Origin: JBMFOH01 sp049969715 [NCBI: bacterium]
GTDB lineage: Bacteria; DUMJ01
NCBI GenBank assembly: GCA_049969715.1
Contig: JBMFOH010000003.1
Coordinates: forward strand, 1 to 25,675
Reading direction: 5' to 3'
DNA length: 25,675 bases
Of the stretch, positions 82 to 25,390 are shown piece by piece. The notes under the pieces were generated by a model. It made no database searches. It was not told the DNA's origin and saw only the letters and a program-made list of their open reading frames with translations. The translations under genes and the position numbers were made by a program. The first letter of the stretch is position 1, and the number at the start of each line of letters is the position of its first letter.

Positions 82-109
82 TTGACAGAGATAAAATTTT
101 CACTATAAT
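82..109 (+). promoter_or_regulatory. Promoter of the glutamate synthase operon
   Basis: TTGACA at 82-87 and TATAAT at 104-109 are separated by 16 bp. Both hexamers match the sigma70/sigmaA consensus exactly. The predicted start is near 116, which gives a leader of about 140 nt before the first gene. Confidence 0.8.
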
Positions 110-130
110 TATCTTTACAACTCATTTATA

Positions 131-181
131 CCCAAGGCAATGGTGCCTGGGGATCAAGTAGAAGCGATGGTTGCTTCTGCC
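131..181 (+). promoter_or_regulatory. Twin stem-loop leader, candidate ANTAR antitermination target
   Basis: Two hairpins stand 5 nt apart in the leader. Hairpin 1 (131-152) pairs CCC-A-AGGC with GCCT-GGGG, with one A/G mismatch, and closes on the hexaloop AATGGT: A at loop position 1, G at position 4. Hairpin 2 (158-180) has an 8-bp stem (GTAGAAGC with GCTTCTGC, one T-G pair) and a 7-nt loop GATGGTT. Read with G166 bulged, the loop is ATGGTT, again A1/G4. ANTAR proteins such as AmiR, NasR and EutV are known to bind paired hexaloop hairpins of this kind. The 3' arm of hairpin 2 (173-181) can also pair with GGTGGAGC at 211-218, so a competing fold exists, but no clean terminator T-run follows. 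That it is a target is inference, strengthened by the ANTAR gene in the same operon. Confidence 0.6.
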
Positions 182-255
182 AAAGTCGGTATATTATGTA
201 TTCCAATGAAGGTGGAGCATATCTGAACAATCTTTATACCTCAAGGAGGCAATAA

Positions 256-1371
256 ATGAAAGATATAAATCTTAAGTATATAGAAGGAGAGATTAGAATT
301 CCCTCGGCTTGTGGACTCTTAGGTTATATAAACAGAAAGGGGGAATTAACCTCTGGCTCTCATATAGTAAGCGCAATGAGTGTGATGAGAGAAAGAGGGA
401 ATGGACTGGGGGCAGGCTTTGCAGGTTATGGAATCTATCCTGATAAAGAGGACTACTATGCGCTCCATTTGTTTTTTGAGGACGATAAAGCCAAAGAAGA
501 GACCTCTTCTCTTTTCTATAGGTATCTAGATGTAGTTCAAGAAGAAAGGATACCTACAAGAAAGATAAGGGAAATAAAGGATCCCCCTATAATATGGAGA
601 TACTTTGCCAAACCTAAAGAGGTGTATTTAGAGGAATCTGATCTTACTGAAGATGACTTTATAGTAGACCTTATTATGAAGGTTAATACCAAGATTAGAG
701 GGGCGTATGTCTTTTCTAGCGGGAAAAATATGGGTGTATTTAAGGGTGTAGGATATCCAGAAGAGATAGGAGATTTCTATAAACTTGAGGAGTATTATGG
801 TTATACTTGGATAGCACATTCTAGATTTCCTACCAATACCCCAGGATGGTGGGGAGGAGCCCATCCTTTCTCTCTACTAGACTGGACAGTAGTCCATAAT
901 GGAGAGATATCATCATATGGAACAAATGTAAGATACGTAGAGATGTTTGGCTATAAATGTACACTTATGACTGATACTGAGGTTATAGCATACCTCATAG
1001 ATCTACTTATAAGGCGTCATAAGCTACCATTGGACATAGCTATCAAGACATTTGTCCCACCTTTTTATACTATTATTGATAGGATGGAAGAAGAGGAGAA
1101 AAGAAAAATGAAGGCTATAAGATCAGTGTATCAGGGTTGTCTTTTAAATGGTCCATTTGCTATTATTGTCGGATTTAAAGATGGAATAATTGCCTTGAAT
1201 GATAGGATAAAGCTTAGACCATTAGTAGCAGGGGAGAATGATGACTTTGTATATGTAGCCTCTGAAGAAGCTGCGATAAGAGAATTATCTCCCAAACTCA
1301 ATAGGGTATGGATGCCTAGAGGAGGAGAGGCAGTTATATCTATTTTAGAAGAAAAGGGTGTATTAATATGA
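256..1371 (+). CDS. Glutamate synthase, glutamine amidotransferase subunit (split GltB N-domain)
   Basis: This 371-residue protein is the class-II (Ntn-type) glutaminase part of glutamate synthase made as a separate polypeptide. It should release ammonia from glutamine and pass it to the FMN subunit encoded next. The likely nucleophile is Cys19 in the segment IPSACGLLGYIN; the 18 residues before it would be removed as a propeptide, as is usual in this class. Further family segments are the HSRFPTNTPGWWGGAHPF region and the HNGEISS motif, which bind glutamine. The ATG at 256 follows AAGGAGG (243-249). It overlaps the next gene by 4 nt (ATGA), so translation is probably coupled. Split glutamate synthases of this layout are known in archaea, Thermotogales and some clostridia. 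The role is confident; the exact processing site is inferred. Confidence 0.9.
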   Translation: MKDINLKYIEGEIRIPSACGLLGYINRKGELTSGSHIVSAMSVMRERGNGLGAGFAGYGIYPDKEDYYALHLFFEDDKAKEETSSLFYRYLDVVQEERIPTRKIREIKDPPIIWRYFAKPKEVYLEESDLTEDDFIVDLIMKVNTKIRGAYVFSSGKNMGVFKGVGYPEEIGDFYKLEEYYGYTWIAHSRFPTNTPGWWGGAHPFSLLDWTVVHNGEISSYGTNVRYVEMFGYKCTLMTDTEVIAYLIDLLIRRHKLPLDIAIKTFVPPFYTIIDRMEEEEKRKMKAIRSVYQGCLLNGPFAIIVGFKDGIIALNDRIKLRPLVAGENDDFVYVASEEAAIRELSPKLNRVWMPRGGEAVISILEEKGVLI

Positions 1372-2876
1372 AGACTTTATATGAATCAGATTTTCTTGTA
1401 ATAAGAGATGAAACCAAATGTATACGATGTAAAGTATGTGTAAGACAGTGTGCAAATGAAGTACATCAATACAATGAAGAAGAGGATAGGGTTGTTGCAA
1501 ATAACTCTAAATGTGTAGGATGTCATAGATGTGTTGCTCTGTGTCCTACAAAGGCTATTACTATTATTAAAAATCCATTAGACTTTAGAGAAAATTACCA
1601 ATGGACGGAAAGAGCAATTAAGGATATATATAAACAGTCTGAGACAGGAGGGATCCTTCTCACTGGGATGGGAAATGACAAAGTCTATCCTATATATTGG
1701 GATAGACTTTTAATAAACGCAAGTCAAGTAACGAATCCTTCTATAGATCCTTTGAGAGAACCAATGGAGCTTAAGACATTCATTGGGAGAAAGCCAGAAA
1801 GATTAGAGTTCGATATCTATGGAAACCTACTAACAGAAATGCCTCCTCAATTAGAACTAGAGATACCTATAATGTTTTCTGCGATGTCTTTTGGCTCTAT
1901 AAGTATCAATGCATGCGAGTCGCTCGCTAGGGCAAGTGTAGATGTTGGTACATTCTGGAACACTGGCGAGGGAGGCCTCCATAGAAAGCTCTATCCTTAC
2001 AGGGACCATGCTATTGTCCAATGTGCGTCAGGTAGATTTGGAGTTGATGTAGACTATCTAAATGCAGGAACTGCTATCGAGATAAAGATTGGACAAGGAG
2101 CAAAACCAGGAATAGGGGGGCATCTTCCTGGTGAAAAGGTTGGAGAAGAGGTATCTAAAACAAGGATGATTCCTCTAGCAACAGACGCCATCTCCCCTGC
2201 CCCCCATCACGATATATATTCAATAGAAGATTTAAGACAATTGATATATGCATTAAAAGAGGCAGTAAATTATAAAAAACCAGTTGGGGTAAAGATAGCT
2301 GCCGTACATAATGTCTCTGCCATAGCATCAGGTATAGCTAGAGCGGGTGCAGATTTTATAGCAATAGACGGATTCAGAGGAGGAACAGGGGCTGCTCCTA
2401 CCAGGATAAGGGATAATGTTGGTATTCCTATAGAATTAGCCTTAGCTTCAGTTGACACCCGATTAAGAGAGGAAGGCTTAAGGAATCAGGTTTCTATAAT
2501 AGCAGCTGGTTCTATCAGAAATAGTGCAGATGTAATCAAAGCTATAGCGCTAGGAGCAGATGCAGTATATATAGCTACAGCTGCCTTAGTAGCCTTAGGG
2601 TGTCATCTCTGTCAAAACTGTCACACGGGTAGGTGTAACTGGGGGATAGCTACTCAAGACCCTTATCTAGCAAAGAGGTTAAATCCAGATATTGGAGCTA
2701 GAAGAGCCATTAATCTATTAAGAGCATGGGAACATGAGATAAAGGAGATGCTAGGAGGGATGGGAATAAACGCATTAGAAAGCCTAAGAGGTAATAGGCT
2801 CATGCTGAGAGGTGTGGGATTAAATGAGAAAGAATTAGAAATCCTAGGAGTGAAACATGCAGGGGAGGGAATTTAG
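1368..2876 (+). CDS. gltB: Glutamate synthase FMN-binding synthase subunit with N-terminal ferredoxin domain
   Basis: This 502-residue catalytic subunit condenses ammonia with 2-oxoglutarate and reduces the product to glutamate on FMN. Residues 1-70 are a two-cluster ferredoxin with Cys18/21/24/28 and Cys49/52/55/59. The TIM-barrel synthase domain follows (about 90-490), with family segments such as SFGSISINA, the GEGGL turn, and PHHDIYSIEDL. Near residues 411-425 the run CHLCQNCHTGRC supplies the 3Fe-4S cluster ligands. The N-terminal ferredoxin domain marks the archaeal-type enzyme rather than the long proteobacterial GltB. The start overlaps the upstream stop by 4 nt, and the stop directly abuts the next ATG. 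Electrons probably arrive through the ferredoxin and flavoprotein encoded downstream rather than through a classical GltD; that route is inferred. Confidence 0.93.
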   Translation: MKTLYESDFLVIRDETKCIRCKVCVRQCANEVHQYNEEEDRVVANNSKCVGCHRCVALCPTKAITIIKNPLDFRENYQWTERAIKDIYKQSETGGILLTGMGNDKVYPIYWDRLLINASQVTNPSIDPLREPMELKTFIGRKPERLEFDIYGNLLTEMPPQLELEIPIMFSAMSFGSISINACESLARASVDVGTFWNTGEGGLHRKLYPYRDHAIVQCASGRFGVDVDYLNAGTAIEIKIGQGAKPGIGGHLPGEKVGEEVSKTRMIPLATDAISPAPHHDIYSIEDLRQLIYALKEAVNYKKPVGVKIAAVHNVSAIASGIARAGADFIAIDGFRGGTGAAPTRIRDNVGIPIELALASVDTRLREEGLRNQVSIIAAGSIRNSADVIKAIALGADAVYIATAALVALGCHLCQNCHTGRCNWGIATQDPYLAKRLNPDIGARRAINLLRAWEHEIKEMLGGMGINALESLRGNRLMLRGVGLNEKELEILGVKHAGEGI

Positions 2877-3347
2877 ATGGAGTTAAAAACAAAAAGAAGA
2901 ATATATCCAAAAGAAGATGTATGCATAGGATGCCATCTCTGCGAGATATACTGTATTTGGGCTCATTCTGGTACTACAGACCTGATTAAAGCCTTCAATA
3001 TGGCAAATAAACCGTCACCTAAGGTTCTTGTAGAAGAGAAAGAAGACTACTATATAACCTTTGCATTGCAGTGTCGTCACTGTGATGACCCATTATGTAC
3101 TAAAGCCTGTATCACATCTGCTCTACATAGGGACGAAGAAACTGGATATATCATATTGGATGAGGAGAAATGCGTAGGATGTTGGTCATGCATCTTAGTC
3201 TGTCCATATGGAGCAATTATAAGAGACAAAGATAAGAGTATTGCTTCTAAATGTGATCTATGCATAGAGAACGGAAATCCGATTTGTGTAGAGAATTGTC
3301 CCAATGAAGCTTTAGAGCTGAGAGAGCTGGAGGAGGAACTAAAGTGA
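2877..3347 (+). CDS. Four-cluster ferredoxin-like electron carrier of the glutamate synthase complex
   Basis: The 156-residue protein has sixteen cysteines in four groups: Cys16/19/22/26, Cys66/69/74/78, Cys99/102/105/109 and Cys126/129/137/141. This is the pattern of the HycB/DmsB/CooF family, which usually carries four [4Fe-4S] clusters. There is no signal peptide, so it should be cytoplasmic. It lies between the FMN synthase gene (start codon directly after that stop) and the flavoprotein gene (4-nt overlap). It therefore most likely passes electrons from the flavoprotein to the synthase. The family is clear; the partner assignment rests on gene order. Confidence 0.87.
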   Translation: MELKTKRRIYPKEDVCIGCHLCEIYCIWAHSGTTDLIKAFNMANKPSPKVLVEEKEDYYITFALQCRHCDDPLCTKACITSALHRDEETGYIILDEEKCVGCWSCILVCPYGAIIRDKDKSIASKCDLCIENGNPICVENCPNEALELRELEEELK

Positions 3348-4591
3348 GATATGTAATTATTGGAAATTCAGTAGCTTCTGCAGGATGTATAGAGGGTATA
3401 AGGATGGTGGATCTTGAAAGTGAGATAGTGGTGCTTTCTGATGAGCCCTACCATATGTATTCTAGGCCTTTGATCTCATATTGGCTATCAAAAAAGGTAA
3501 CAGATGTATACTATCGACCTATAGATTATTATGAAAAATATAGAATAATTCCTCTCCTTGGAAAAAAGGTAATAAGAGTAGATTTTGAAAATAAAACTAT
3601 AGCGTTAGCAGCTGGTGAGAAGATAAACTATGATAAGCTACTTATAGCAACTGGTGGGAAACCTTTTATTCCCACTATTCCAGGGACTAATAAGAAGAAT
3701 GTCTTTACCTTTGTAAGGTTTGATGATGTTAAAGAGATAGATAGGGTAATATCTGTTGGCGCTAATGTGATAGTAGTTGGTGCAGGATTAAGTGGACTAA
3801 AGGCGGTAGAGGCTTTATTAATAAGAAACTGCAATGTTATAGTGGTAGAGCTAGCAGGAAGGATCCTAGGATCTATCCTAGACGAAGAAGGGGCAAAGAT
3901 AGTTCAGGACATATTAGAAGAAAGAGGTGTAAGATTCTTGTTGGAGAATTCTGTAACTGAAATTCTTGGAGAAGAAACAGTAAAAGGAGTAAGGCTAAAA
4001 TCTTCAGATATAATTCCAACAGATATACTCATCTTTGCTATAGGTGTGGTACCTAATATAGATATCTTTAAAGATACCCCCTTAAAGATAAATCGAGGTA
4101 TCTTGGTAAATGAAAAGATGGAAACAAACATACCAGATGTATACGCTGCAGGTGATGTAGTGGAAGCCTTAGATGTTATAGCTGGAGGTATTCGGGTAAT
4201 TCCTATATTTCCAAACGCCTATATACAGGGTGAAGTAGCAGGTCTTAACATGGCAGGAAAGGAAGCTATATATAAGGGAGGATTTCCAATGAACTCTATA
4301 GGCTTTTTTGATACCCATATTATGTCTGCTGGATTGGTGAACCCCTCTCAAGAGATGGAAGTTTTAAAGAGGTTTGAGCCTAATAAAAAGATATATAGAA
4401 AGATATATCTTAAGGATGGAAGGATCCTTGGATTTATGTTCATAAATTCTATAGATAGAACTGGGATGATAGTAGACCTTATGAAAAACGGTATAGATGT
4501 TTCTAATTTTAAAGACCGTTTATTATCAGATAATTTTGGATTTTTAGACCTACCGAAAGAATTTAGAAGGGAGAGAATCCTAGGGGTTTAG
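3344..4591 (+). CDS. FAD/NAD(P)H-dependent oxidoreductase, electron input of split glutamate synthase
   Basis: A 415-residue pyridine nucleotide-disulfide oxidoreductase fold. The N-terminal FAD-binding strand is present as IIGNSVASAG, slightly off the strict GxGxxG. The NAD(P)H-binding GAGLSG is near residues 147-152, followed by an acidic residue at the end of the next strand (VVVELAGRI), which favours NADH over NADPH. The second FAD motif, VYAAGDVVE, lies near residue 270. It resembles NADH oxidase and rubredoxin reductase flavoproteins, without the redox-active CxxxxC of disulfide reductases. The start is GTG at 3344, overlapping the ferredoxin stop by 4 nt (GTGA). Its position suggests that it takes over the GltD role, oxidising NADH and feeding the four-cluster ferredoxin. 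That role is inferred from context. Confidence 0.87.
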   Translation: MRYVIIGNSVASAGCIEGIRMVDLESEIVVLSDEPYHMYSRPLISYWLSKKVTDVYYRPIDYYEKYRIIPLLGKKVIRVDFENKTIALAAGEKINYDKLLIATGGKPFIPTIPGTNKKNVFTFVRFDDVKEIDRVISVGANVIVVGAGLSGLKAVEALLIRNCNVIVVELAGRILGSILDEEGAKIVQDILEERGVRFLLENSVTEILGEETVKGVRLKSSDIIPTDILIFAIGVVPNIDIFKDTPLKINRGILVNEKMETNIPDVYAAGDVVEALDVIAGGIRVIPIFPNAYIQGEVAGLNMAGKEAIYKGGFPMNSIGFFDTHIMSAGLVNPSQEMEVLKRFEPNKKIYRKIYLKDGRILGFMFINSIDRTGMIVDLMKNGIDVSNFKDRLLSDNFGFLDLPKEFRRERILGV

Positions 4592-4593
4592 TT

Positions 4594-5349
4594 ATGGAAA
4601 AGGAAGGAAAATTAAAGATTATATCAGCTAAGGGGGTACCCTATAGGCTTCTCAATGAGAGGATAAGAGAGGCACTAGAGGAAGGATATCAAGAAGTTAG
4701 GGTTCTAGGAGTAAATGGACAACGCTATATAGGGGATGGGCTTACCTTTCCAGAGAGAGTTTTAGAGGTACATGGAACTGCAGGGAATGACTTGGCGGTA
4801 TTTGCAAATGGCATTACGATAAAGCTTTTTGGGAATGCCCAGGATGGCGTGGCCAATACTATGAACGATGGAGAGGTAATAATATATGGTAGCGTTGGAG
4901 ACCTTATGGGATATGGGATGAGAGGAGGAAGGGTCTTTATAAGAGATTCAGTAGGTTATAGGGCTGGGATTCATATGAAAGAATATGAGGATAAGATGCC
5001 TATCCTAGTAATTGGAGGAGGATGTGGTGACTTCTTAGGAGAATATATGGCAGGGGGAAGGATCATTGTTTTAGGCTTAGATAGAGAAGAAGGGGATATA
5101 ATAGGATACTTCTGTGGAACAGGGATGCACGGTGGGGTAATTTATATAAGAGGTATGGTTCCAGAGTATAAACTGGGTAAAGAGGTAAGAATAATGGAGA
5201 TAGACAGGGATGATATAGATTTTCTCCAGAAGCAATTGCTAGACTTTTCAAATCACTTTGGGATAGATCTTGACTCTATTATGAACAAACCTTTTTATAA
5301 ACTTATCCCCTACAACAAACGTCCATATGGTAGACTATACGCCTATTAA
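4594..5349 (+). CDS. Glutamate synthase GXGXG-domain subunit (split GltB C-domain)
   Basis: This 251-residue protein corresponds to the C-terminal right-handed beta-helix of GltB. The repeats place glycines regularly, for example GTAGNDLAVFANG, LFGNAQDG, IYGSVGDLMGYGMRGG and FCGTGMHGG. In full-length GltB this domain is structural and lines the path between the glutaminase and synthase sites. It also resembles the FwdC subunit of formylmethanofuran dehydrogenase, but no other fwd gene is nearby and the neighbouring glt pieces settle the assignment. The ATG is 2 nt after the previous stop, so it is read as part of the same operon. It completes the set of GltB domains (glutaminase, FMN, GXGXG) as three proteins. 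Confidence 0.9.
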   Translation: MEKEGKLKIISAKGVPYRLLNERIREALEEGYQEVRVLGVNGQRYIGDGLTFPERVLEVHGTAGNDLAVFANGITIKLFGNAQDGVANTMNDGEVIIYGSVGDLMGYGMRGGRVFIRDSVGYRAGIHMKEYEDKMPILVIGGGCGDFLGEYMAGGRIIVLGLDREEGDIIGYFCGTGMHGGVIYIRGMVPEYKLGKEVRIMEIDRDDIDFLQKQLLDFSNHFGIDLDSIMNKPFYKLIPYNKRPYGRLYAY

Positions 5350-5380: not shown

Positions 5381-6145
5381 ATGGCAACTATCAAGGAGCT
5401 AAAAAAGATAATAGAAGAGAAAGATAGAGAGTTATCATCTTTGAGACATGAGTTAGAGAAAAAGGATGCAGAGCTAGATAAAATAATAAAGATATCCTCT
5501 TTTGCAGCCTTACAGCCTAGCCCTATTGAAGATATACTCAATCTTATAGTAGCAGTAACTGCCGAGCTTCTAGATACAAAGCTCTGTTCTATAATGCTTG
5601 TGGATGAGGAAAAAAAAGAATTCATAATTAAAGCCACACAAAGCCTAGATGAAGAGTATAAAAATAAGCCTAATCTAAAATTGAATCAAGGGATAACTGG
5701 CTTAGTAGTAGAAGAAGGGCGTCCTATTATAGTATCTGATGTCAGAGAAGATTCTAGGTTTGTATATAGAGACATTGCCAAGAGACTTGGGTTGGTGTCT
5801 ATGCTTGCAGTTCCAATGTGCTTTAGAGAAAGGATAGTAGGGGTTGTGAATGTCTATACCTCAGAAAGGCATAATTTTACTAAAGAAGAGGTAGGTATTG
5901 TGCAAGCCCTGGCAAATTATGCTGCCATAGTGATTGGAAGTAGTCAGCTTAGAGAAGAAGTCAATAGACTTAGAGATTCTCTAGAAACAAGGAAGATAGT
6001 AGATAGAGCCAAAGGGATTTTGATGAAACATAAGGGAATGAGCGAGGAAGAAGCATATAGATTTATCCAAAAGAAGAGTATGGATACAGGAAAGTCTATG
6101 AAGGAAATTGCCTCTGCTATATGCCTTCTTTCCGAGATAGGATAA
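5381..6145 (+). CDS. GAF-ANTAR transcription antitermination regulator
   Basis: The 254-residue protein has three parts. Residues 1-35 are a charged heptad coiled coil (ELKKIIEEKDRELSSL), probably for dimerisation. About 45-190 form a GAF sensor domain (for example LKLNQGITGLVVEEGRPIIV and AVPMCFRERIVGVVNVYTSE). About 200-250 form an ANTAR domain with the typical RAKGILM, GMSEEEAYRFIQ and KSMKEIA segments. ANTAR domains bind twin-hairpin RNA and prevent transcription termination. Here the sensor is GAF, not a phosphorylated receiver as in AmiR, NasT or EutV, so a small ligand is the likely signal; which one is unknown. ATG 5381 follows AGGGAGG, 31 nt after the last glt gene with no terminator between, so it belongs to the glt operon. 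The glt and glnA leaders are its obvious candidate targets. Confidence 0.9.
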   Translation: MATIKELKKIIEEKDRELSSLRHELEKKDAELDKIIKISSFAALQPSPIEDILNLIVAVTAELLDTKLCSIMLVDEEKKEFIIKATQSLDEEYKNKPNLKLNQGITGLVVEEGRPIIVSDVREDSRFVYRDIAKRLGLVSMLAVPMCFRERIVGVVNVYTSERHNFTKEEVGIVQALANYAAIVIGSSQLREEVNRLRDSLETRKIVDRAKGILMKHKGMSEEEAYRFIQKKSMDTGKSMKEIASAICLLSEIG

Positions 6146-11539: not shown

Positions 11540-12784
11540 ATGGACAGTTTTGTAGAAAGATACTACAAGAGGAACTTTCTGGTTAATAGTCTAGATGTAG
11601 GATTTTTTACCCTTGGGCTTACATTCGTTTCTACCTCTACTATATTTCCTGTTCTTATCAAAAACCTTGGTGGTTCAAACCTTCATATAGGACTTATTCC
11701 TGCCATTGCCAACCTAGGTTGGACGATTCCTAGTTTGTTTGGAGCAAAGTTAATAGCAAATATGCCAAGAAAGTTAGGCTTCATACTGAAAGGAACAGTA
11801 TGGGAAAGAGTTCCTTATCTGATCATTGCTATACTACTTTTATTCTTAGCCCCTAAGAATCCAACCTTAACATTATACCTCTCTCTTTTACTTCTCTTCG
11901 TTACTACCTTCGCTGGGGGAATACTCTTCCCTGCATGGCTTGATCTCATAGGTAAGATCATTATACCCTCTAAAAGGGGGACATTCTTTGCTATAGGAGG
12001 AGGAATAGGTGGGGCAGCAGGGATAGTTGCATCATTTATAGCCAAACAATTTTTAGAGACTTATCCATTTCCTCTCAACTTCTTTTATTGTTTTTTAAGC
12101 GCAAGTATCTCTCTTGGTATTTCCTATCTATTTATTTCTCTTGCCAAAGAACCAGAGTCAGATGTAAACTCAGACGAGATTGGCTTCTCCGACTATATAA
12201 AGAGCCTTCCTACTGTTTTAAAAAATGATAGAAACTTTTCCTTTTACATTCTAGCTAGGGTTATAGCCACACTAGGAAGTATGGGGGTCGGGTTCTATAC
12301 GGTATACAGCCTAAAGGAATTTGCTCTTGCAGACGAATATGCTGGCATCTTCAGTGCATTTCTCTTAGGTTCTCAGACACTCTCTACCTTCATCTTAGGG
12401 CCTATAGGTGATAAAAGGGGGCACAAACTCATCCTCTCCTCTGGGATTCTATCTCTTACCCTAGCATATTTAGGGCTCCTATTAGGGATAGGCTCTTGGA
12501 CAGCTTATCTAGCCTTTACATTTTTAGGCATAAACTATAGTGCATTCAATACATCGGGTTTGGCTTTATTAATAGAATTTACAGATGAAGAATTAAGGGC
12601 GATATATGTAGCCCTCTCCAATACGATAATAGGGCCATTCAGTTTCATTGCCCCAATTATAGGCGGGACATTAGCCAATAGCTTAGGTTATAAGATAATG
12701 TTTCTAATCTCTCTAATATTGAGTCTAGTAGGATTTCTCATTATGCATTTTATGGTTAAAGAACCGAGGAAGTCTCTTAACTAG
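11540..12784 (+). CDS. Major facilitator superfamily transporter
   Basis: The 414-residue protein is hydrophobic throughout, with about twelve membrane segments in two halves joined by a charged loop near 200-220 (KEPESDVNSDEIGFSDYI). The segment GPIGDKRGHKLIL in the second half matches the MFS loop between helices 8 and 9 (GxxxDRxGRR type). The substrate cannot be read from the sequence; export of the product of the upstream enzymes is plausible. It starts 4 nt after the radical SAM stop, with only a weak ribosome binding site. Its last 60 nt overlap the convergent metal permease gene, and I see no terminator between them. Confidence 0.87.
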   Translation: MDSFVERYYKRNFLVNSLDVGFFTLGLTFVSTSTIFPVLIKNLGGSNLHIGLIPAIANLGWTIPSLFGAKLIANMPRKLGFILKGTVWERVPYLIIAILLLFLAPKNPTLTLYLSLLLLFVTTFAGGILFPAWLDLIGKIIIPSKRGTFFAIGGGIGGAAGIVASFIAKQFLETYPFPLNFFYCFLSASISLGISYLFISLAKEPESDVNSDEIGFSDYIKSLPTVLKNDRNFSFYILARVIATLGSMGVGFYTVYSLKEFALADEYAGIFSAFLLGSQTLSTFILGPIGDKRGHKLILSSGILSLTLAYLGLLLGIGSWTAYLAFTFLGINYSAFNTSGLALLIEFTDEELRAIYVALSNTIIGPFSFIAPIIGGTLANSLGYKIMFLISLILSLVGFLIMHFMVKEPRKSLN

Positions 12785-13561
12785 GAGGGATAGTACAAAT
12801 ATAAAGACATTTACAAGGATGATTACCCCTCCAGAAGCCACATTAAAGTAATAAGAAAAGAGTAAACCAATAAAGATAGAAAAAACCCCTATAAGCATAG
12901 AGAAAATGGTGGTCATCTTGAAGCTATTGGAAACCTCTATAGCAGTAGCAACAGGAAGCACTGTAAGGGCAGAAACAAGTAAGATGCCAGAAATCCGTAT
13001 GGAAATAGCTATGGTAATGGCACTTGTAAGAATAAAAAGGATATTTACCCTTTCAGCGGGTAATCCACTTGCTTTGGCAGACTCTTCATCAAATGAGATA
13101 TAAAAAAGAACGTTATACATAAGGTACATACTTAGGATACCCAAAATACCTATTATGATGGTAAGGACAAGGTCTCCTCTTGTTAAAGCCAAAATACTAC
13201 CAAATAGATAGGAATTGATATTTATATTCATCCCCTTGAAAAAGCTTATAATTACTATCCCCAATGCCAAGCCTGTAGAGAGAAAGATTGCTGTAGCAGT
13301 ATCCCCATAAAGTCTAGTTTTTCTGGAAACATAGTCTATTCCAAGCCCTCCAATGATACTAGAAATCAGCAGAGCTAATGATGGATTTAAACCGAGCACT
13401 ATCCCTAAAGCCAATCCACCAAAAGATAGATGAGCTATACCATCTGCTATGAGAGAAAGATTTCTTAACACAAGGAAAATTCCTATCAAAGGGCATAAGA
13501 TACCTATTATAACTCCAGAAATGAAGGCATACTGCATAAATGTGTACTGAAAGATCCCCAT
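12725..13561 (-). CDS. znuB: Zinc/manganese ABC transporter permease
   Basis: An ABC-3 family permease of 278 residues with about eight membrane helices. It has the family segments LRNLSLIADGIAHLSFGGLALG and FDEESAKASGLPAERVN, the cytoplasmic coupling region, and ends in a basic tail. I chose ATG at 13561 (MGIFQYTF) because it follows GGAAGGAG at a good distance and lies 5 nt after the ATPase stop. An ATG at 13606 would add 15 residues inside the ATPase gene. With ZnuC and ZnuA it should import Zn2+ (or Mn2+). Its 3' end overlaps the oppositely oriented MFS gene by 60 nt. Confidence 0.9.
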   Translation of the reverse strand: MGIFQYTFMQYAFISGVIIGILCPLIGIFLVLRNLSLIADGIAHLSFGGLALGIVLGLNPSLALLISSIIGGLGIDYVSRKTRLYGDTATAIFLSTGLALGIVIISFFKGMNININSYLFGSILALTRGDLVLTIIIGILGILSMYLMYNVLFYISFDEESAKASGLPAERVNILFILTSAITIAISIRISGILLVSALTVLPVATAIEVSNSFKMTTIFSMLIGVFSIFIGLLFSYYFNVASGGVIILVNVFIFVLSLLVKRLPRFFNHKMHNEKSY

Positions 13562-13566
13562 ATTTT

Positions 13567-14271
13567 CTACTCCTTCCTTAAAAGTTCTTCTATCTCTAAG
13601 GGCCAAAGGACCTTTTTATAAAATTCCTGAGGCCTACCAATAAAGTGAAGCTTCTTATTGAGGTAAGCCAGTCTTGTAACTTCGCTTGCCACTGCACTTA
13701 CATCATGGGAAACGATAATAATAGTAATATTCATATCCCTATTTAGTTCTCCTAAAAGATTATAGAATTGTGTCTGGGCATTAATATCTACACCTGTAGT
13801 TGGTTCATCTAGGACCAAAAGTTCAGGGTTACTGACAATAGTTCTAGCAATAAATACCCGTTGTTGCTGTCCACCTGAAAGCTCTCCTATCCTTCTCTTC
13901 TTATACATCACCATCCCTACTCTTTCTAATGCAGAGTCTATAAGTTTGTAATCCTCATTACTTAGTCTTCTATATATCGGAGTACCCAGTCTCCCTAGGG
14001 CTACTATCTCTTCTACAGTAGCAGGGAAATTTCTCTTAAAAGAAGTAGCCTTCTGAGGGATGTAACTTACCCTATTGGTATAGAGATGAACTTCTCCGAC
14101 CCTTGGTCTTAAAATACCAGTAATAATCTTCAAAAGAGTACTCTTCCCAGACCCATTAGGCCCTATAATACCTAGGATTTCGTTCTTAGTAAGTTCAAAA
14201 GATATATTTTCTAGGACATCCTCCCCGTTATAACTAAAATATACGTTCTTAAGCTCTAATACCTTATCCAT
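13567..14271 (-). CDS. znuC: Zinc/manganese ABC transporter ATP-binding protein
   Basis: A 234-residue ABC ATPase. It has Walker A GPNGSGKST (about 37-45), the Q-loop in YIPQKA, the signature LSGGQQQR (about 132), Walker B LLVLDEPT and the switch His in IIVSHD. The segment FPATVEEIVALGR after the Q-loop is typical of the metal-importing ABC-3 group. It powers the ZnuB permease encoded 5 nt downstream. The ATG overlaps the end of the binding-protein gene by 8 nt, so translation of the two is likely coupled. Confidence 0.92.
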   Translation of the reverse strand: MDKVLELKNVYFSYNGEDVLENISFELTKNEILGIIGPNGSGKSTLLKIITGILRPRVGEVHLYTNRVSYIPQKATSFKRNFPATVEEIVALGRLGTPIYRRLSNEDYKLIDSALERVGMVMYKKRRIGELSGGQQQRVFIARTIVSNPELLVLDEPTTGVDINAQTQFYNLLGELNRDMNITIIIVSHDVSAVASEVTRLAYLNKKLHFIGRPQEFYKKVLWPLEIEELLRKE

Positions 14272-15139
14272 TGAACTCTAATGCCAACTTTAGATTTTCT
14301 AGATTCTCTTTCATCTTAGAAATATAGTCCTTTTCCATATCTAAATCCTTTTTAGACAAACCCTCTATAGGATCAAGGATAAGTATCTTGGCTCCCGTTT
14401 CTTGAGCTATAGAATTAACAAGTGCTGGGGACACAAGGGGTTCTGCAAAAATATACTTTATCTTATGGTCCTTAACAAATTTGGTAATTTCTGCTACATC
14501 TTTGGCACTTGGCTCCGCCTCTGGAGAGATACCAGTAATGGAAATTTGCGTAAGTCCATACCTCTTAGCAAAGTATGAGAAAGCAGCATGCAATACTACA
14601 AATTCTCTCTTCTTACACCTAGAAACTACCTTCCGAATCTCTTTATCTAAGGCATCAAGCTTTTTCGAATACTCTATATAATTCTTTTCATAGTATGCTT
14701 TATTCTTAGGGTCAAGAGCAATTAACTCGTCTTTTATAGCCTTAGCTTGAAGCTTTACTAATATTGGATCTAACCATATATGTGGATCTTGTAACTCCAT
14801 ATTTATAGCCTTACTCAAATCGAGTACTCTTAAATTTTTATTATTACTTGACCTAATAAAGTTTTCTGCCCAAGATTCTAGACTTTTCCCATTATAGATG
14901 AAGAGATCTGCCTTGTGTAATTTTATCACGTCACCTGGAGAAGGCTCCCAATCGTGAGGTTCTACATTAAAGGGAATCAAAACAGATACCTCTACCTTCT
15001 CTCCTCCAATATTTCTTGTAAAATCATAAATAGGATAGAAACTTGCTACAACCCCTAATTTATCCTTCCCAAAAGAAAAAGATGGAATTATTAGAAGAAA
15101 TATAGAAAACAACACTATTATTTCTTTCGTTCTTGACAT
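14264..15139 (-). CDS. znuA: Periplasmic zinc/manganese-binding protein of the ABC importer
   Basis: A cluster A-I solute-binding protein of 291 residues. An N-terminal Sec signal (MSRTKEIIVLFSIFLLIIPS, then FSFG) lacks a lipobox cysteine, so it is probably free in a periplasm. Likely metal ligands are His62 in EPHDWEPSPGD, the His in DPHIWLDP, the His in VVLHAAFSYF, and a C-terminal acidic residue. The His-rich loop of many ZnuA proteins is absent. I chose ATG at 15139, which follows GAAGGA, rather than ATG 15169, which would put ten charged residues before the signal. It overlaps the fur/zur gene by 22 nt. Zinc is favoured over manganese because of the linked repressor, but this is inference. 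Confidence 0.88.
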   Translation of the reverse strand: MSRTKEIIVLFSIFLLIIPSFSFGKDKLGVVASFYPIYDFTRNIGGEKVEVSVLIPFNVEPHDWEPSPGDVIKLHKADLFIYNGKSLESWAENFIRSSNNKNLRVLDLSKAINMELQDPHIWLDPILVKLQAKAIKDELIALDPKNKAYYEKNYIEYSKKLDALDKEIRKVVSRCKKREFVVLHAAFSYFAKRYGLTQISITGISPEAEPSAKDVAEITKFVKDHKIKYIFAEPLVSPALVNSIAQETGAKILILDPIEGLSKKDLDMEKDYISKMKENLENLKLALEFNG

Positions 15140-15567
15140 TTTTCCTTCAACTCCTTCCTTTTTTGGCATTCAGCACAATATCCATATAATTCTAAGTAAT
15201 GGTCCGTGATAAGAAAACCAGAATTCCCTAGTATAGCTCCCTCTATTGGCTTGATAAAGCATCCATCTAAGGGGGTAATCTTCCCACAACCTATGCATAT
15301 AAGATGATGATGGTGGGTAAGAAGGTTTGATTCATACCTTATTATTCCGTCATTAAATATCACCTTCCTTATCAGTTTCTTCCTTTCAAAAAGTTCCAAC
15401 GTTCTATAAATGGTAGTTCGTCCCACCTTTATTGAATCTAGCAAACAATCATATACCTCATCAGCAGTCATTGGTCGCCCTATTTCTAATAACATCTGAA
15501 GTATCGCTCTACGCTGTTCTGTTACCTTTTCTCCACTATTTTTTATTAATTCTTCTATATTATTCAT
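15118..15567 (-). CDS. Fur-family metal-responsive repressor, probably Zur
   Basis: The 149-residue protein has the Fur winged helix at 1-85 (VTEQRRAILQML, RPMTADEVYDCL, VGRTTIYRTLELFE), the HHHHLICIGCGKI metal-sensing region and two CxxC pairs (CIGC and CAEC) for the structural zinc. It heads the znuACB operon and has an inverted repeat over its own start site, so it most likely represses this operon when zinc is plentiful. Zur is preferred over Fur or PerR from context only; residues alone do not decide. Start ATG 15567; its ribosome binding site (GGTGA) is weak. Confidence 0.88.
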   Translation of the reverse strand: MNNIEELIKNSGEKVTEQRRAILQMLLEIGRPMTADEVYDCLLDSIKVGRTTIYRTLELFERKKLIRKVIFNDGIIRYESNLLTHHHHLICIGCGKITPLDGCFIKPIEGAILGNSGFLITDHYLELYGYCAECQKRKELKEKCQERKK

Positions 15568-15704: not shown

Positions 15705-16721
15705 CTAATTTTTACTCAACTTTTCAGCTATCCTCTTCCCCATATCTAAAGTGCTAGCACTTCCTCCAAGGTCATAGGTGATATACTTTCCTTCCTTTAT
15801 AGTTTCCGCCACTGCTTCTACTATGCGATTTTCCCAATCCTTCTCTCCTAGATATCCCAACATCATCGCAGATGCCAGTATAACAGCAGTTGGATTTACC
15901 TTGTATTGTCCTTTATACTTTGGAGCAGAACCATGGACTGCCTCAAAGATAGCTGCATCTTCCCCAATATTAGCACCAGGAGCCAAACCTAATCCTCCCA
16001 CAAGACCTGCACAGAGATCAGAAAGGATATCACCAAAAAGATTAGTAGTCACTATTACATCAAAATTCTCTGGATTTTTTACCAATTGCATAGCCATATT
16101 ATCTACTATCTTATCTTCAAATCCTATGTCTGGAAAATCCTCTGAAACACTTTTAGCAACATCTAAAAATAATCCGTCTGTAAATTTCATTATATTTGCC
16201 TTATGTACTGCTGTCACCTTTTTCCGATTGTTCTCTCTTGCATAGTTAAAGGCAAATCTAACTATCCTTTCGCTAGCCTTCTTAGTGATGACTCTTATAC
16301 TCTCTGCAGCTGTTCTATCTTCATCTACATAGTGTTCAATTCCAGCATAGAGGTCCTCTGTGTTCTCTCTTATAACCACGAGGTCTACATTGTCATATCT
16401 ACTTGGAACACCCAAGAAAGATCTTACTGGTCTTACATTGGCAAATAACTTGAGTTCTTGTCTCATAGCTACATTTACACTCCGAAATCCAGTCCCAATG
16501 GGTGTTGTTATTGGACCTTTCAAGGCAACCTTATTTCTCTTTATACTTTCTATAGTCTCATCAGGGATAGGGGTGCCATATTTCTCTATAGCCCCTTCTC
16601 CAGCAAGACACTCCTCCCATTCAATCTCAAGACCCGTAGCATTTAAAACTAGTAGCGTCGATTCTATAATCTCAGGACCTGTTCCATCTCCTTTTATCAA
16701 TGTTATCTTATATCTAGCCAA
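15705..16721 (-). CDS. icd: Isocitrate dehydrogenase-like decarboxylating dehydrogenase (probably NADP-dependent)
   Basis: A 338-residue member of the isocitrate/isopropylmalate/homoisocitrate dehydrogenase family. The substrate loop reads [11 protein letters not shown], giving Ser81, Asn83 and Arg87. This is the SxNxxxR pattern of isocitrate dehydrogenase, not the pattern of isopropylmalate or homoisocitrate enzymes. The cofactor loop [10 protein letters not shown] has Lys268-Tyr269, as in NADP-dependent E. coli enzyme, where NAD types have Asp-Ile. Catalytic Tyr in DLYAGIE, Lys in HKANIMK, and metal-binding Asp207, Asp231 and Asp235 are present. I chose TTG at 16721, after GGAGG, over ATG at 16736 (five extra residues, weaker site). 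It overlaps the small-subunit gene by 8 nt. The likely product is 2-oxoglutarate; substrate still needs assay. Confidence 0.85.
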
Positions 16722-17214
16722 TTGAAAAACCTCCATACTTCTTGAAATAATTTACCAATCCTCCGTTTTCCAATAGCTCCATCATAAAAGGTGGAAGAGG
16801 GTTAATCGCTAATCTAAAACCCTGAGTAATATCCTCTAGCATACCGTTCTCAAGGTCTATCTTTAATTCATCCCCGTTATTTATATTTGATGTATCACAC
16901 TCTACCAAAGGTAGACCATTATTTATTGCATTCCTATAGAAGATCCTAGCAAAAGAGACCGCTATTACTCCACTTAGTCCTGCATACTTTATTACTAATG
17001 GTGCCTGCTCTCTGCTAGAGCCACAACCAAAATTTTTTCCGGCCACAATGAAATCTCCAGGCTTTACTTTTTTGATAAACTCAGGGTCTATGTCTTCTAA
17101 AAGGTGTTGAGAAAGTTCCCTCATATCTAGGGTTTTGAATTTATATTTCCCTGAGATAATATAATCGGTGTTTATATCATCACCTAGTTTATGAGCAGTA
17201 CCATAAAGAATCAT
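16714..17214 (-). CDS. Aconitase/homoaconitase/isopropylmalate isomerase-family small subunit
   Basis: The 166-residue protein is the swivel domain of a two-subunit aconitase-family hydro-lyase. It shows [15 protein letters not shown], the conserved [14 protein letters not shown] and [15 protein letters not shown]. The loop that selects the substrate reads YKFKTLD. In the methanogen enzymes this loop is YLRT in homoaconitase and YLVY in isopropylmalate isomerase. The basic, non-aliphatic loop here argues for a tricarboxylate substrate, so citrate or homocitrate rather than isopropylmalate. That is an inference from loop chemistry. ATG 17214 follows AAGGAGG and overlaps the large-subunit stop (ATGA). 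Confidence 0.83.
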
Positions 17215-20140: not shown

Positions 20141-20231
20141 CAGTTTGAGACGACGATGTCTTAGACTGTGGTTTTTATCCAATGAGGGATCCCCAGTGTA
20201 GGTTTACCTGGAATCATATGTATTTGTTTTT
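20141..20231 (+). promoter_or_regulatory. glnA leader: twin hairpins plus competing fold, candidate ANTAR attenuator
   Basis: Hairpin 1 (20141-20168) has an 11-bp stem with two G-U pairs and exactly six loop bases, GACGAT (G at position 4, G rather than A at 1). Hairpin 2 (20177-20190) is ATCC/GGAT around the hexaloop AATGAG, which has A1 and G4. Its 3' arm can instead pair in a longer hairpin, GATCCCCAG (20188-20196) with CTGGAATC (20208-20215), with one mismatch and one bulge. A T-rich run TTTGTTTTT follows at 20223-20231, 7 nt away, which is further than ideal for a terminator. Hairpin 2 and the longer hairpin exclude each other, as in known ANTAR attenuators. The folds are read by eye; function is inferred. 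Confidence 0.6.
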
Positions 20232-23306: not shown

Positions 23307-23645
23307 TTATAGTGCTGCCTCTCCTTTTTCTCCTGTTCTAATTTTTATAACATCCTCAATAGGATAGATAAAGATCTTTCCGTCACCAATCTCTCCAGTT
23401 TTTGCAGTAGTTATAATAGCTTCAACTATCATATCTATTTCTTCGTCTCTTGCTATGATTTCTAGTTTTATCTTTGGTAATAAATCTATTGTATAAGTTT
23501 TACCTCGCCATTGGGCAGTTATTCCCTTTTGTCTCCCATGACCTTCGACTTCTGTAATTGTTATCCCAGGATAACCGAGCTCCTGAAGGGCATTCATTAT
23601 AGCATCTAGTCTTCCAGACCGAACTATTGCCTCTATCTTTTTCAT
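23307..23645 (-). CDS. glnB: Nitrogen regulatory protein P-II
   Basis: At 112 residues this is a standard P-II trimer subunit that senses 2-oxoglutarate and ATP/ADP. The T-loop is GHGRQKGITAQWRGKTYTID. Tyr51, the residue uridylylated in proteobacteria, is present; position 46, often Tyr, is Trp; position 49 is Lys, so no serine for phosphorylation. The C-terminal signature reads TGEIGDGKIFIYPIEDVIKIRTGE, with the 2-oxoglutarate/ATP-contacting residues. It overlaps the ammonium transporter gene by 4 nt (ATGA), the usual GlnK arrangement, so plugging the Amt channel is its likely main job. GlnK would be an equally good name. Confidence 0.96.
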   Translation of the reverse strand: MKKIEAIVRSGRLDAIMNALQELGYPGITITEVEGHGRQKGITAQWRGKTYTIDLLPKIKLEIIARDEEIDMIVEAIITTAKTGEIGDGKIFIYPIEDVIKIRTGEKGEAAL

Positions 23646-25222
23646 CTTACTACCTTCTTTCTACGTGAAATTACATCTCTAAGAGATATAATTCCCTGGT
23701 GTATCTCTTCTTTAGTCATCTTTATTCCTAGATATCCTGGTACTCCCATTTCCGGTAGGTCAAGCCCTTCTATTTCAGAGATGGGATCAACCCTCAAACC
23801 AACAGTTTTGTCTAATAACTTGAAGAAAAGATAAGAGAGGGAAAACACAAAAATAAAGTTTACAGTAACTCCAATTAATTGTGCCATGAATTGTCCACCA
23901 TCTCCATAGAGTAATCCCTTAACAGTTCCAACAATACCATTTAATCCATCTCCATAGGTTCCATCTGCAAATAATCCTAATGCTAAACAGCCCCATGCTC
24001 CACATACTCCATGCACAGAGATAGCCCCTACAGGGTCATCTACCTTAAGTACTCTGTCTATATAAAAGACACTAATAACTACGAGTAGGCCTGCTATTGC
24101 ACCGATAATAAAGGCAGAGATACTATTAACAAAGGCACAGGGAGCGGTGATAGCTACCAGTCCTGCAAGCATACCATTTGCCATCATGCTAGGATCAGGC
24201 TTACTAGATTTAATCCACATTAATATAGTAGCCATAAGTGTTCCAGAGGCAGATGCTATCATTGTATTTACCGCTATAACACTAATCCTGAGATCTGTTC
24301 CCGCTAGAGTTGAACCAGCATTAAACCCAAACCAGCCAAAGGCTAAGATAAATGTTCCAATAATAGCCATAGGGATATTATGTCCAGGGATGACATTTAC
24401 GTTTCCATCCTTTCCGTACTTACCCAACCTTGGTCCTATAACTATTGCTCCAGCAAGGGCGGTTATGCCTCCTACCATATGCACTACAGATGACCCAGCA
24501 AAGTCCAAGTGACCATGTCCTAACCCGAAGTTAACTCCTAACTGAGATAGCCATCCTCCACCCCAAACCCAGTTTCCGTAGATAGGATAAAGAAACATAG
24601 AGATAAAGAAACCAAAGATTACAAAAGGAAGAAATCTCCATCTCTCTGCCATGGCGCCAGTTGGGATAGTAGCTGCAGTATCCATAAATACCATCTGAAA
24701 GAGAAAGAGGGCAAATATTGCAACATCATAGGCAGTTCCGGAGAGGAAAAATCCGTTTAGACCGAGTAATCCGAAATTCTTACCAAAAAGATTTATACTG
24801 AGTTCTCTGTTAAGTCCATTGTATCCACCTAGTGTAGTTATAGGTCCTATCCCTCCAAACATAAATGCGAATCCGCAGATCCAGAAGCCTATCATACCAA
24901 TAGCATAAATAAGAAAATTCATCGCCATAGTATGTGCAACATTTTTAGCCCTAGTAAATCCTGTTTCTACCATTGCAAATCCAGCCTGCATAAACATAAC
25001 TAAAAAACCTGCTATAAGAGCCCATATGAAATTTATAGCTATCCTATTATGACCTACCTCATTTGCGATATCGATTAATGTAAACTTGCTCTGACTCTTG
25101 TTGTGTATATCCACTATGTTTCCTGTAATAATACCACTTGGATCATTTTCTCTAGCGAAGATTACATTAGTGAAGATAATAAACAAAGTCAATAAAATGA
25201 AAATAAATACTAACCGCTTCAA
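23642..25222 (-). CDS. amt: Ammonium transporter (Amt/MEP/Rh family)
   Basis: The 526-residue protein has an N-terminal signal-like helix (MKRLVFIFILLTLFIIFTNV), an extra-cytoplasmic segment of some 35 residues, then eleven predicted membrane helices. Family segments include FMQAGFAMVETGF, AGSSVVHMVGG with the first pore histidine, and SVHGVCGAWGCLALGLFADG with the second. The cytoplasmic tail continues to VGLRVDPISEIEGLDLPEMG, the usual P-II contact region, and ends in a basic stretch. The start is TTG at 25222, seven bases after AAGGAGG. It brings in ammonium and is presumably gated by the P-II protein encoded next. Confidence 0.95.
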   Translation of the reverse strand: MKRLVFIFILLTLFIIFTNVIFARENDPSGIITGNIVDIHNKSQSKFTLIDIANEVGHNRIAINFIWALIAGFLVMFMQAGFAMVETGFTRAKNVAHTMAMNFLIYAIGMIGFWICGFAFMFGGIGPITTLGGYNGLNRELSINLFGKNFGLLGLNGFFLSGTAYDVAIFALFLFQMVFMDTAATIPTGAMAERWRFLPFVIFGFFISMFLYPIYGNWVWGGGWLSQLGVNFGLGHGHLDFAGSSVVHMVGGITALAGAIVIGPRLGKYGKDGNVNVIPGHNIPMAIIGTFILAFGWFGFNAGSTLAGTDLRISVIAVNTMIASASGTLMATILMWIKSSKPDPSMMANGMLAGLVAITAPCAFVNSISAFIIGAIAGLLVVISVFYIDRVLKVDDPVGAISVHGVCGAWGCLALGLFADGTYGDGLNGIVGTVKGLLYGDGGQFMAQLIGVTVNFIFVFSLSYLFFKLLDKTVGLRVDPISEIEGLDLPEMGVPGYLGIKMTKEEIHQGIISLRDVISRRKKVVR

Positions 25223-25329
25223 CTTGATTCCTCCTTTTAAAAATTAGAAAATGCACTCTCTTAAGAAGTCCTTCGTTGGAAATTTCCGACCTCGGAGGAT
25301 GAAGCCTTAATAGTCAAAAGAAACTATAA

Positions 25330-25390
25330 GCAACGACGCCCAAAAAGCGCACTTTGCCGATATGTATCGTTAGAACCTCTACGTTCTAAC
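25330..25390 (-). promoter_or_regulatory. Structured leader of the amt-glnB operon
   Basis: On the minus strand the transcript starts with a perfect 8-bp hairpin at 25390-25369, GTTAGAAC with GTTCTAAC, closing the hexaloop GTAGAG (G at positions 1 and 4, as in hairpin 1 of glnA). A second, less regular hairpin at 25357-25330 (GCAA/TTGC below, GCGC/GCGT above) has the 7-nt loop TTTTTGG and does not fit the ANTAR loop rule. The rest of the 170-nt leader contains GGAAATTTCC and a T-rich part before the ribosome binding site, but no clean terminator. A link to the ANTAR protein is tentative. Confidence 0.4.

What the first reader, a model, noticed from the sequence alone, without database searches (positions are those of the whole stretch)
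131..181. Glutamate synthase operon leader carries an ANTAR-type twin hairpin and encodes its own ANTAR protein
Two adjacent hairpins with loops AATGGT and (G)ATGGTT match the known A1/G4 hexaloop rule, and the last gene of the same transcript is a GAF-ANTAR protein. This predicts an autoregulated antitermination circuit on a split glutamate synthase. ANTAR control of nitrogen genes is known; a GAF-sensing version built into a split GOGAT operon is to my knowledge little described. The second loop is 7 nt unless one G bulges, which is a weakness.
Basis: partly seen in the sequence, partly recalled or inferred. Interest (0 to 1): 0.8.

Follow-up and report, generated by a model that had tools for sequence, protein, structure and literature searches.

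The report
RNA hairpin array controlling nitrogen genes
The start of this glutamate-synthesis mRNA carries a row of small RNA hairpins that look like landing sites for an RNA-binding regulator encoded at the end of the same gene cluster, and similar rows precede other nitrogen genes in this and related bacteria; the kind of control is known, but the multi-hairpin layout without a recognisable terminator looks like a variant.

Summary
Two hairpins lie at 131-178 behind a consensus sigma70-type promoter, and the sixth gene of the cluster encodes a GAF-ANTAR protein that keeps the EutV residues contacting loop base G4. The element is more than a twin. P1 (AATGGT) is an A1/G4 hexaloop. P2 has a 7-nt loop, GATGGTT; the bulged-G reading fails because the one close relative with this leader reads GATGTCC. 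A true A1/G4 hexaloop (P3, TGCC-AAAGTC-GGTA, 178-191) and a 2-bp fourth were missed. In 11 leaders of this lineage (GOGAT, glnA, amt, FMN-GltS, GAF-ANTAR), G-C-topped hexaloops with stems of 3 bp or more are A/G1-G4 in 22 of 24. In the window such hairpins cluster only in the GOGAT and amt leaders. It is very probably a GAF-ANTAR regulon. No intrinsic terminator was found in this leader, so antitermination is unproven and translational control a real rival. ANTAR control of glutamate synthase is already reported (Ramesh 2012). Covariance models trained on sister leaders do not find this leader significantly. Side result: 25 (strict) to about 46 (loose) of 62 orthologous leaders carry an A1/G4 hexaloop overlapping a terminator. 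New variant of a known kind.

The parts
82..109 (+). sigma70-type promoter TTGACA-16-TATAAT; transcript start expected near 116
   Evidence: 12 of 12 consensus match; start site inferred
131..151 (+). P1: apical AGGC/GCCT, hexaloop AATGGT (A1, G4), closing C-G
   Evidence: apical pair probabilities 0.54, 1.00, 1.00, 1.00; relative L110 has AGAC AACGAA GTCT, a compensatory G-C to A-U change
160..178 (+). P2: AGAAGC/GCTTCT with 7-nt loop GATGGTT (extendable to 158-180)
   Evidence: relative loop GATGTCC. Spacing from the P1 apical arm to the P2 top pairs (15 nt) matches the other leaders (14-17 nt, counted by hand)
178..191 (+). P3: TGCC AAAGTC GGTA, A1/G4 hexaloop; shares 178-180 with the extended P2 stem, so competes with it
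   Evidence: pair probability 0.00 in the protein-free ensemble; relative GCC AAGGTT GGC, probability about 0.3
203..212 (+). P4: CC AATGAA GG, weak 2-bp A1/G4 hexaloop
   Evidence: relative CC AATGGT GG; probability 0.01 alone
239..249 (+). CCTC AAG GAGG hairpin holding the Shine-Dalgarno sequence
   Evidence: pair probabilities 0.96-0.98 in window and in L110
256..1371 (+). glutamate synthase, class-II amidotransferase subunit
   Evidence: Pfam GATase_2
1368..2876 (+). glutamate synthase FMN subunit with Fe-S domain
   Evidence: Pfam Glu_synthase
2877..3347 (+). 4Fe-4S ferredoxin-like subunit
3344..4591 (+). pyridine nucleotide-disulphide oxidoreductase subunit
4594..5349 (+). GXGXG subunit
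5381..6145 (+). GAF-ANTAR RNA-binding regulator
   Evidence: Pfam ANTAR 4.5e-22, GAF_2 6e-22; EutV R142, K149, E160, Y164, M172 conserved
20146..20202 (+). glnA leader array: P1 loop GACGAT, P2 ATCC AATGAG GGAT, P3 CC AGTGTA GG
   Evidence: P1-P2 is one of the five training rows of model R1; P2 and P3
20258..21601 (+). glnA
   Evidence: Pfam
25269..25390 (-). amt leader array: loops GTAGAG, GTCGTT, GAGGTC, AACGAA (and a 7-nt AAAGTGC)
   Evidence: GTAGAG and AAAGTGC read by eye
23642..25222 (-). ammonium transporter; a P-II gene follows (23307-23645)
   Evidence: Pfam

Best explanation
The leader is a cis target of the GAF-ANTAR protein encoded by the last gene of the cluster. It belongs to a nitrogen-assimilation regulon (split GOGAT, glnA, amt, a second FMN-GltS gene, and the GAF-ANTAR gene itself) whose transcripts begin with arrays of two to five short hairpins, mostly with hexanucleotide loops obeying R1-N2-N3-G4. 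The GAF domain senses an unknown nitrogen or redox signal (inferred). The ANTAR domain then binds the loops through G4 (inferred from conserved EutV residues), and binding lets the operon be expressed (inferred), giving feedback on the regulator itself. P2 and P3 overlap by three bases, so binding could move the RNA from long P2 to P3 (inferred). The output step is unresolved: about 40% relief of non-intrinsic (for example Rho-dependent) termination, 20% of an intrinsic terminator that the scans missed, 30% translation through the Shine-Dalgarno hairpin, 10% other. (This split was redrawn on checking, because it did not agree with the rival odds and left out the weak terminator candidate of L110.)
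For: GAF-ANTAR gene 31 nt downstream of GXGXG with R142, K149, E160, Y164 and M172 of EutV kept. Consensus promoter before the array. 11 leaders: G-C-topped hexaloops with stems >=3 bp are ANNG 16, GNNG 6, YNNG 0, other 2; 0 of 500 shuffles reach the ANNG or the GNNG count. Scan of 13 stretches, 238,232 strand-bases: clusters of RNNG hexaloops lie in eight N-gene or ANTAR leaders and nowhere else. Model R1, trained on glnA and ANTAR leaders, finds two untrained leaders, both of an FMN-GltS-like gene, at E 1.3e-9 and 1.6e-8; its next hits in three genomes are E 0.096 or worse. Over 17 hand-paired orthologous loops the differences by position are 4,5,10,0,6,10, though the loops were partly picked for R1 and G4. 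GOGAT P1 shows a compensatory change in L110. Orthologous GOGAT leaders elsewhere carry an A1/G4 hexaloop overlapping a terminator.
Against: Neither covariance model finds this leader significantly (R1: 12.1 bits, E 0.68, P1 only; R2: 13.6 bits, E 0.47). P2 breaks the hexaloop/A1 rule; P3 and P4 are not predicted to form without protein. Covariation is slight: on A6 one pair changes on both sides, and 56 of 500 column shuffles match the covariation score. Only one close relative has this leader (L001's contig starts inside the gene). Two relatives have the ANTAR gene outside the GOGAT cluster. No binding data.
Confidence: 0.8

Rival explanations
1. Classical ANTAR antitermination: binding to P1-P2 prevents an intrinsic terminator in the GOGAT leader.
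For: It is the known mechanism (PMC3369931 and PMC8934654, passages read), and orthologous GOGAT leaders have overlapping terminators (25 of 62 strictly). L110's GOGAT leader has one weak candidate (-8.0 kcal/mol, tail ATTTATATC) pairing the P2 loop with the P3 3' arm, and some sister leaders have P1 or an extended P2 followed by U-rich sequence.
Against: No terminator-like structure in the window leader in two scans, although the second scan recovers likely gene-end terminators such as the one after the HU gene at -18.6 kcal/mol. The L110 candidate is not seen in the window.
Confidence: 0.2
2. Translational control: the array governs access to the Shine-Dalgarno sequence.
For: The SD lies in a CCTC-AAG-GAGG hairpin, probabilities 0.96-0.98, in window and L110; actinobacterial ANTAR RNAs often overlap the RBS or start codon (PMC8164766, abstract and passages).
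Against: The array ends 26 nt before the SD hairpin; by eye the SD hairpin is not in the glnA or amt leaders; a 4-bp stem can occur by chance and the two leaders are close relatives.
Confidence: 0.3
3. The hairpins are ordinary leader structure and the ANTAR gene's position is coincidental.
For: The loose twin descriptor is common; no Rfam hit; covariance models do not reach this leader.
Against: Loop-class bias (22 of 24 R1/G4), clustering at N-gene leaders only, conserved G4 and compensatory change in the relative.
Confidence: 0.08

Closest known systems
ANTAR dual-hairpin target RNAs (EutV, NasR, AmiR; Ramesh et al. 2012, PMC3369931)
   Same: Short stems, hexaloops with G4, closing C-G, nitrogen genes, ANTAR protein encoded nearby; glutamate synthase targets already reported in Desulfotomaculum reducens
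   Different: Array of up to five hairpins, position 1 A or G, one 7-nt loop, no intrinsic terminator found in this leader, GAF sensor
Desulfotomaculum acetoxidans ANTAR regulon (same paper)
   Same: Many hits in several nitrogen operons of one genome (13 in six units, as stated in the text)
   Different: Those are described as transcription attenuation systems; the figure and tables were not seen, so arrays there cannot be excluded
Actinobacterial ANTAR RNAs (Mehta and Ramesh 2021, PMC8164766)
   Same: Loop positions 1 and 4 relaxed (more than 50% conserved), action probably on translation
   Different: Described as dual stem-loops; targets are mostly transport and metabolism genes
Clostridial and spirochaete split-GOGAT leaders found here
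   Same: Orthologous operon, A1/G4 hexaloop, ANTAR gene in 60 of 61 genomes
   Different: Usually one hexaloop before an overlapping intrinsic terminator, near the transcript 5' end

Membership tests
ANTAR dual-hairpin target RNA | two hairpins, stems of at least 3 bp | tested here: met
   P1 and P2 in fold and ensemble
ANTAR dual-hairpin target RNA | both loops hexanucleotide with A1 and G4 | tested here: not met
   P1 yes; P2 is a 7-nt loop GATGGTT (G1, A2, U3, G4). P1 and P3 both satisfy it, but P3 is not predicted to form alone and lies 26 nt from P1
ANTAR dual-hairpin target RNA | linker about 5-12 nt | tested here: met
   P1-P2 linker 6-8 nt by coordinates; range as stated for eut in PMC3369931
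ANTAR dual-hairpin target RNA | closing C-G pair at the loop | tested here: met
   P1, P2 and P3 all close with C-G; feature from NasR SELEX
ANTAR dual-hairpin target RNA | overlapping intrinsic terminator (about 30% of reported hits in ANTAR-bearing genomes) or RBS | tested here: not met
   no terminator found; the array does not overlap the RBS, which is in its own hairpin
ANTAR dual-hairpin target RNA | bound by an ANTAR protein | not testable with these tools
   no binding data
ANTAR domain protein (PF03861) | domain above cut-off with RNA-contact residues | tested here: met
   78 bits against 27.3; R142, K143, K149, E160, Y164, M172 kept; K147 to R, R168 to Q, N173 to D, R175 to G, R177 to S (alignment, residue roles)
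Rfam families | match to a curated family | tested here: not met
   only a tRNA at gathering threshold in the window; two chance-level hits in 1-400

The most novel reading that the evidence does not exclude
The 'dual hairpin' is not the general ANTAR target. Hexaloop number runs from one (terminator-overlapping, near the transcript start, in most of the clostridial and spirochaete GOGAT leaders read here) to as many as five (arrays without a recognisable terminator in this lineage), with position 1 free to be A or G. GAF-ANTAR proteins then control nitrogen assimilation by loading several dimers on an array, without an intrinsic terminator.
Probability: 0.3. Interest if true: 0.7.

Novelty: new variant of a known kind. 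Interest (0 to 1): 0.5.

Why it matters
The EutV-RNA structure paper (PMC8934654, passages) asks why both hairpins are needed if a dimer binds one, and notes that conserved A1 makes no specific contact. Orthologous leaders with one hexaloop before a terminator and paralogous leaders with up to five hairpins, six of 29 counted hexaloops being G1, give natural material to answer both. It also extends predicted GAF-ANTAR control to a central nitrogen pathway in a poorly sampled lineage (three genomes held in its phylum).

Tried and rejected
Twin descriptor search in 81 records: too common to be evidence alone. Bulged-G hexaloop for P2: rejected because L110 reads GATGTCC, so position 4 would be U in that register. 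Rfam: nothing. Model R2 in 299 genomes of G003's phylum: 0 hits, and the tool warns that this shows nothing without a positive control. A scan of distant GOGAT leaders that asked for two G-C top pairs suggested little conservation, and enrichment near ANTAR genes of both R and Y loops (11 of 21 vs 7 of 41, and 8 of 21 vs 4 of 41, counted by me and tested), which I take for a composition effect; that scan missed stems topped C-G then A-T, mended. Structure prediction of the GAF-ANTAR protein: mean pLDDT 64, GAF part poor, so no fold search was run. GAF relatives in the PDB do not tell the ligand. ANTAR arrays were not seen in ten library searches; two of these list only part of what matched (78: 15 of 125,650; 121: 15 of 24). 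Supplementary tables of Ramesh 2012 could not be read, so arrays or clostridial GOGAT leaders may be in them. Recalled, from no call: NitR of Clostridium as an ANTAR-type regulator of glnA; the light-regulated ANTAR protein PAL binding single-hairpin aptamers; that 6wsh is EutV (its numbering fits with an offset of 2).

Full report
What is there. Positions 82-109 hold a TTGACA-16-TATAAT promoter, 12 of 12 consensus bases. The six downstream genes are the amidotransferase, FMN/Fe-S synthase, ferredoxin-like, disulphide oxidoreductase and GXGXG parts of a split glutamate synthase, then GAF-ANTAR. The GAF-ANTAR start lies 31 nt after the GXGXG stop; co-transcription is inferred.

Is it chance? 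The twin descriptor (A1/G4, 6- or 7-nt loops, 4-bp stems) gives 82 matches in 2,655,940 strand-bases of 81 records, so one or two would be expected in a window of this size; it is the only match in this window. The twin alone proves little. Two ANNG hexaloops with 4-bp stems (P1, P3) in this leader are matched by 0 of 4000 shuffles.

The lineage. No genome is held for the window. Its closest relatives found are G001 (L001), G002 (L002/L110) and G004; three genomes are held in that phylum. G002's GOGAT leader is homologous: P1 changes from AGGC/GCCT to AGAC/GTCT (a compensatory G-C to A-U change). Loops change from AATGGT to AACGAA (P1), AAAGTC to AAGGTT (P3) and AATGAA to AATGGT (P4): 0,0,2,0,2,3 differences at positions 1-6 (the loops were picked for R1 and G4, so those two positions are partly by selection). 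P2's loop goes from GATGGTT to GATGTCC, which rules out the bulged-G reading with G4. G001's contig starts inside the gene, so this is one relative only.

A regulon. Similar leaders precede glnA in the window and G002, amt in both, and the GAF-ANTAR gene itself in G001, G002 and G004. Model R1, built from five of these (two glnA, three ANTAR; alignment A5; RNAalifold gave the same structure unaided), found two leaders it was not trained on: G002 C124:13953-13994 (L129:5954-5995, E 1.3e-9) and G004 C44:21930-21971 (L107:6431-6472, E 1.6e-8). Both precede a 526-aa glutamate-synthase-like reading frame (Pfam Glu_synthase for the L107 gene; the L129 gene judged by size and by its start read by eye). 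The next hits in the three genomes were E 0.096, 0.172 and 0.462. R1 and R2 do not find the GOGAT or amt leaders significantly: their second hairpins differ.

Loop statistics. In 11 leaders, hexaloop hairpins whose top two pairs are G-C fall as ANNG 23, GNNG 6, YNNG 0, other 13 (shuffle means 0.44, 0.33, 0.96, 7.1); with stems of at least 3 bp, 16, 6, 0 and 2. Six leaders (GOGAT, glnA, amt in two genomes) were taken by gene; three are leaders of the regulator gene; the two GltS leaders were found by R1 and so are biased. The scan of 13 whole stretches (238,232 strand-bases) is less biased, although the stretches were chosen around N genes, ANTAR genes and model hits: RNNG pairs within 80 nt occur in eight leaders only (window GOGAT and amt; ANTAR in L107, L108, L109; GltS in L107, L129; amt in L110), while 62 pairs of other hexaloops lie elsewhere or are complements of the arrays. 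The glnA leaders are missed there because their P1 has an A-T second pair. Read by eye, housekeeping glnA2 leaders in three genomes (L116-L118) and the second GAF-ANTAR copy of G004 (L106) show no array.

Protein. Against the PDB response regulator 6wsh (EutV, recalled), R142, K143, K149, E160, Y164 and M172 are kept; K147 is R, R168 is Q, N173 is D, R175 is G, R177 is S (roles from PMC8934654 passages; mapping by counting along the printed alignment, chain numbering +2). In that paper mutating N173/R175/R177 together abolished binding, so the loss of R175 and R177 here is a point against identical contacts. G4 stacks on Tyr164 and A1 makes no specific contact, which fits six G1 loops among 29 here. 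NasR SELEX also selects a C:G closing pair with A1/G4 (PMC7496416 passages).

Mechanism. No terminator-like hairpin lies in the window's GOGAT leader in two scans; the second recovers likely gene-end terminators, for example after the HU gene (-18.6 kcal/mol). L110's GOGAT leader has one weak candidate (-8.0) and, in several sister leaders, P1 or an extended P2 is followed by U-rich sequence; the glnA P1 (-15.9) ranks fifth in the whole window. Attenuation is therefore possible in sister leaders. Protein-free ensembles form P1 and P2 but not P3 (0.00 in the window, about 0.3 in L110), because the extended P2 uses 178-180: a P2-to-P3 exchange is an inference. The Shine-Dalgarno sequence lies in a CCTC-AAG-GAGG hairpin in both genomes. 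I hold that ANTAR binding is likely and the output open.

Autoregulation. In the window the regulator gene ends the GOGAT cluster. In G001 and G002 its 3' end is convergent to GOGAT, while its 5' part, on another contig, has its own array leader. The G001 contig ends overlap by 143 identical bases, consistent with one gene; the G002 pieces show no overlap. Self-control is likely by either layout.

Orthologous leaders elsewhere. Of the 80 loci, 62 had a near-complete amidotransferase start with at least 320 bases before it (18 dropped; L002 is one of the 62). In 25 of 62 a C-G-closed A1/G4 hexaloop with a stem of 5 bp or more, such as TGAAC AAAGGC GTTCA or TGGAC AAAGGC GTCCA, has its loop and 3' arm in the 5' arm of a terminator with a T-run. 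By eye, in most the hairpin begins shortly after a -10 box. Among all C-G-closed hexaloops there, overlap was found for 25 of 34 ANNG, 0 of 3 GNNG, 1 of 4 YNNG and 2 of 24 others. A looser scan (4 of 6 pairs, 9-bp terminator; no shuffle control) adds 21 by my reading of its list, about 46 of 62; some of these are weak (10 pairs, three mismatches), and 16 have none or are borderline. Among 15 distinct strict sequences the third pair is AT 9, GC 5, GT 1. A1 and G4 were selected for and loop bases also pair in the terminator, so loop conservation has two causes. 60 of 61 of these genomes encode ANTAR, against 0 of 14 controls, too uniform to correlate with leader type. In the strict set I saw no second A1/G4 hexaloop within 70 bases upstream except in L027, which has a canonical twin (gttgt ACCGCA acagc, 8-nt linker). 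In L065, L066, L068 and L069, and in L008, further A1/G4 hexaloops follow the terminator.

Compared with the literature. Ramesh et al. 2012 (abstract, section 10 part 1, passages) already tie ANTAR RNAs to nitrogen genes and to glutamate synthase in D. reducens, say that about 30% of hits in ANTAR-bearing genomes overlap terminators, and suggest translation for others; PAS and GAF ANTARs were then uncharacterised. A commentary (PMC3369936, one passage) names glutamine synthetase among targets. So the kind is known. What differs is the array, G1 tolerance, the lack of a recognisable terminator and the GAF sensor. My searches of the held library showed no paper on a GAF-ANTAR target RNA or ANTAR arrays, judging from listings and the passages named; most subscription papers and all supplements were not seen.

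Noticed in passing
L006, L010, L047, L052, L065 and others, within 320 bases upstream of the GOGAT amidotransferase gene: 25 (strict) to about 46 (loose, no control) of 62 orthologous split-GOGAT leaders, mostly Clostridia and spirochaetes, carry an A1/G4 hexaloop whose loop and 3' arm form the 5' arm of an intrinsic terminator; usually one hexaloop, not a dual hairpin (L027 is an exception).
   Followed up: partly
window 20146-20202 (+) and 25269-25390 (-): The glnA and amt leaders of the same window carry related hairpin arrays.
   Followed up: yes
L107:4800-6380 (-) and L129:4327-5907 (-): A 526-aa glutamate-synthase-like reading frame follows array leaders that model R1 found without training on them; its function is unknown.
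   Followed up: partly
L107:8498-9712, L108:5721-6947, L109:3398-4612: In relatives the GAF-ANTAR gene is divergent from a 404-408-aa gene; in L107 it has DUF438, hemerythrin and PAS domains, a possible redox partner.
   Followed up: no
L106:7578-8360 and L107:7459-8256: G004 has two GAF-ANTAR copies but no match to the amidotransferase (E 1e-60) or Amt (E 1e-20) queries; one copy lacks the array leader.
   Followed up: partly
window 15705-19593 (-): Homocitrate-synthase-like, split aconitase and isocitrate/isopropylmalate dehydrogenase genes in a row; perhaps a 2-oxoacid elongation pathway such as lysine or leucine synthesis.
   Followed up: no
window 12725-15567 (-): Fur-family regulator followed by a ZnuA-type zinc uptake ABC transporter.
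   Followed up: no
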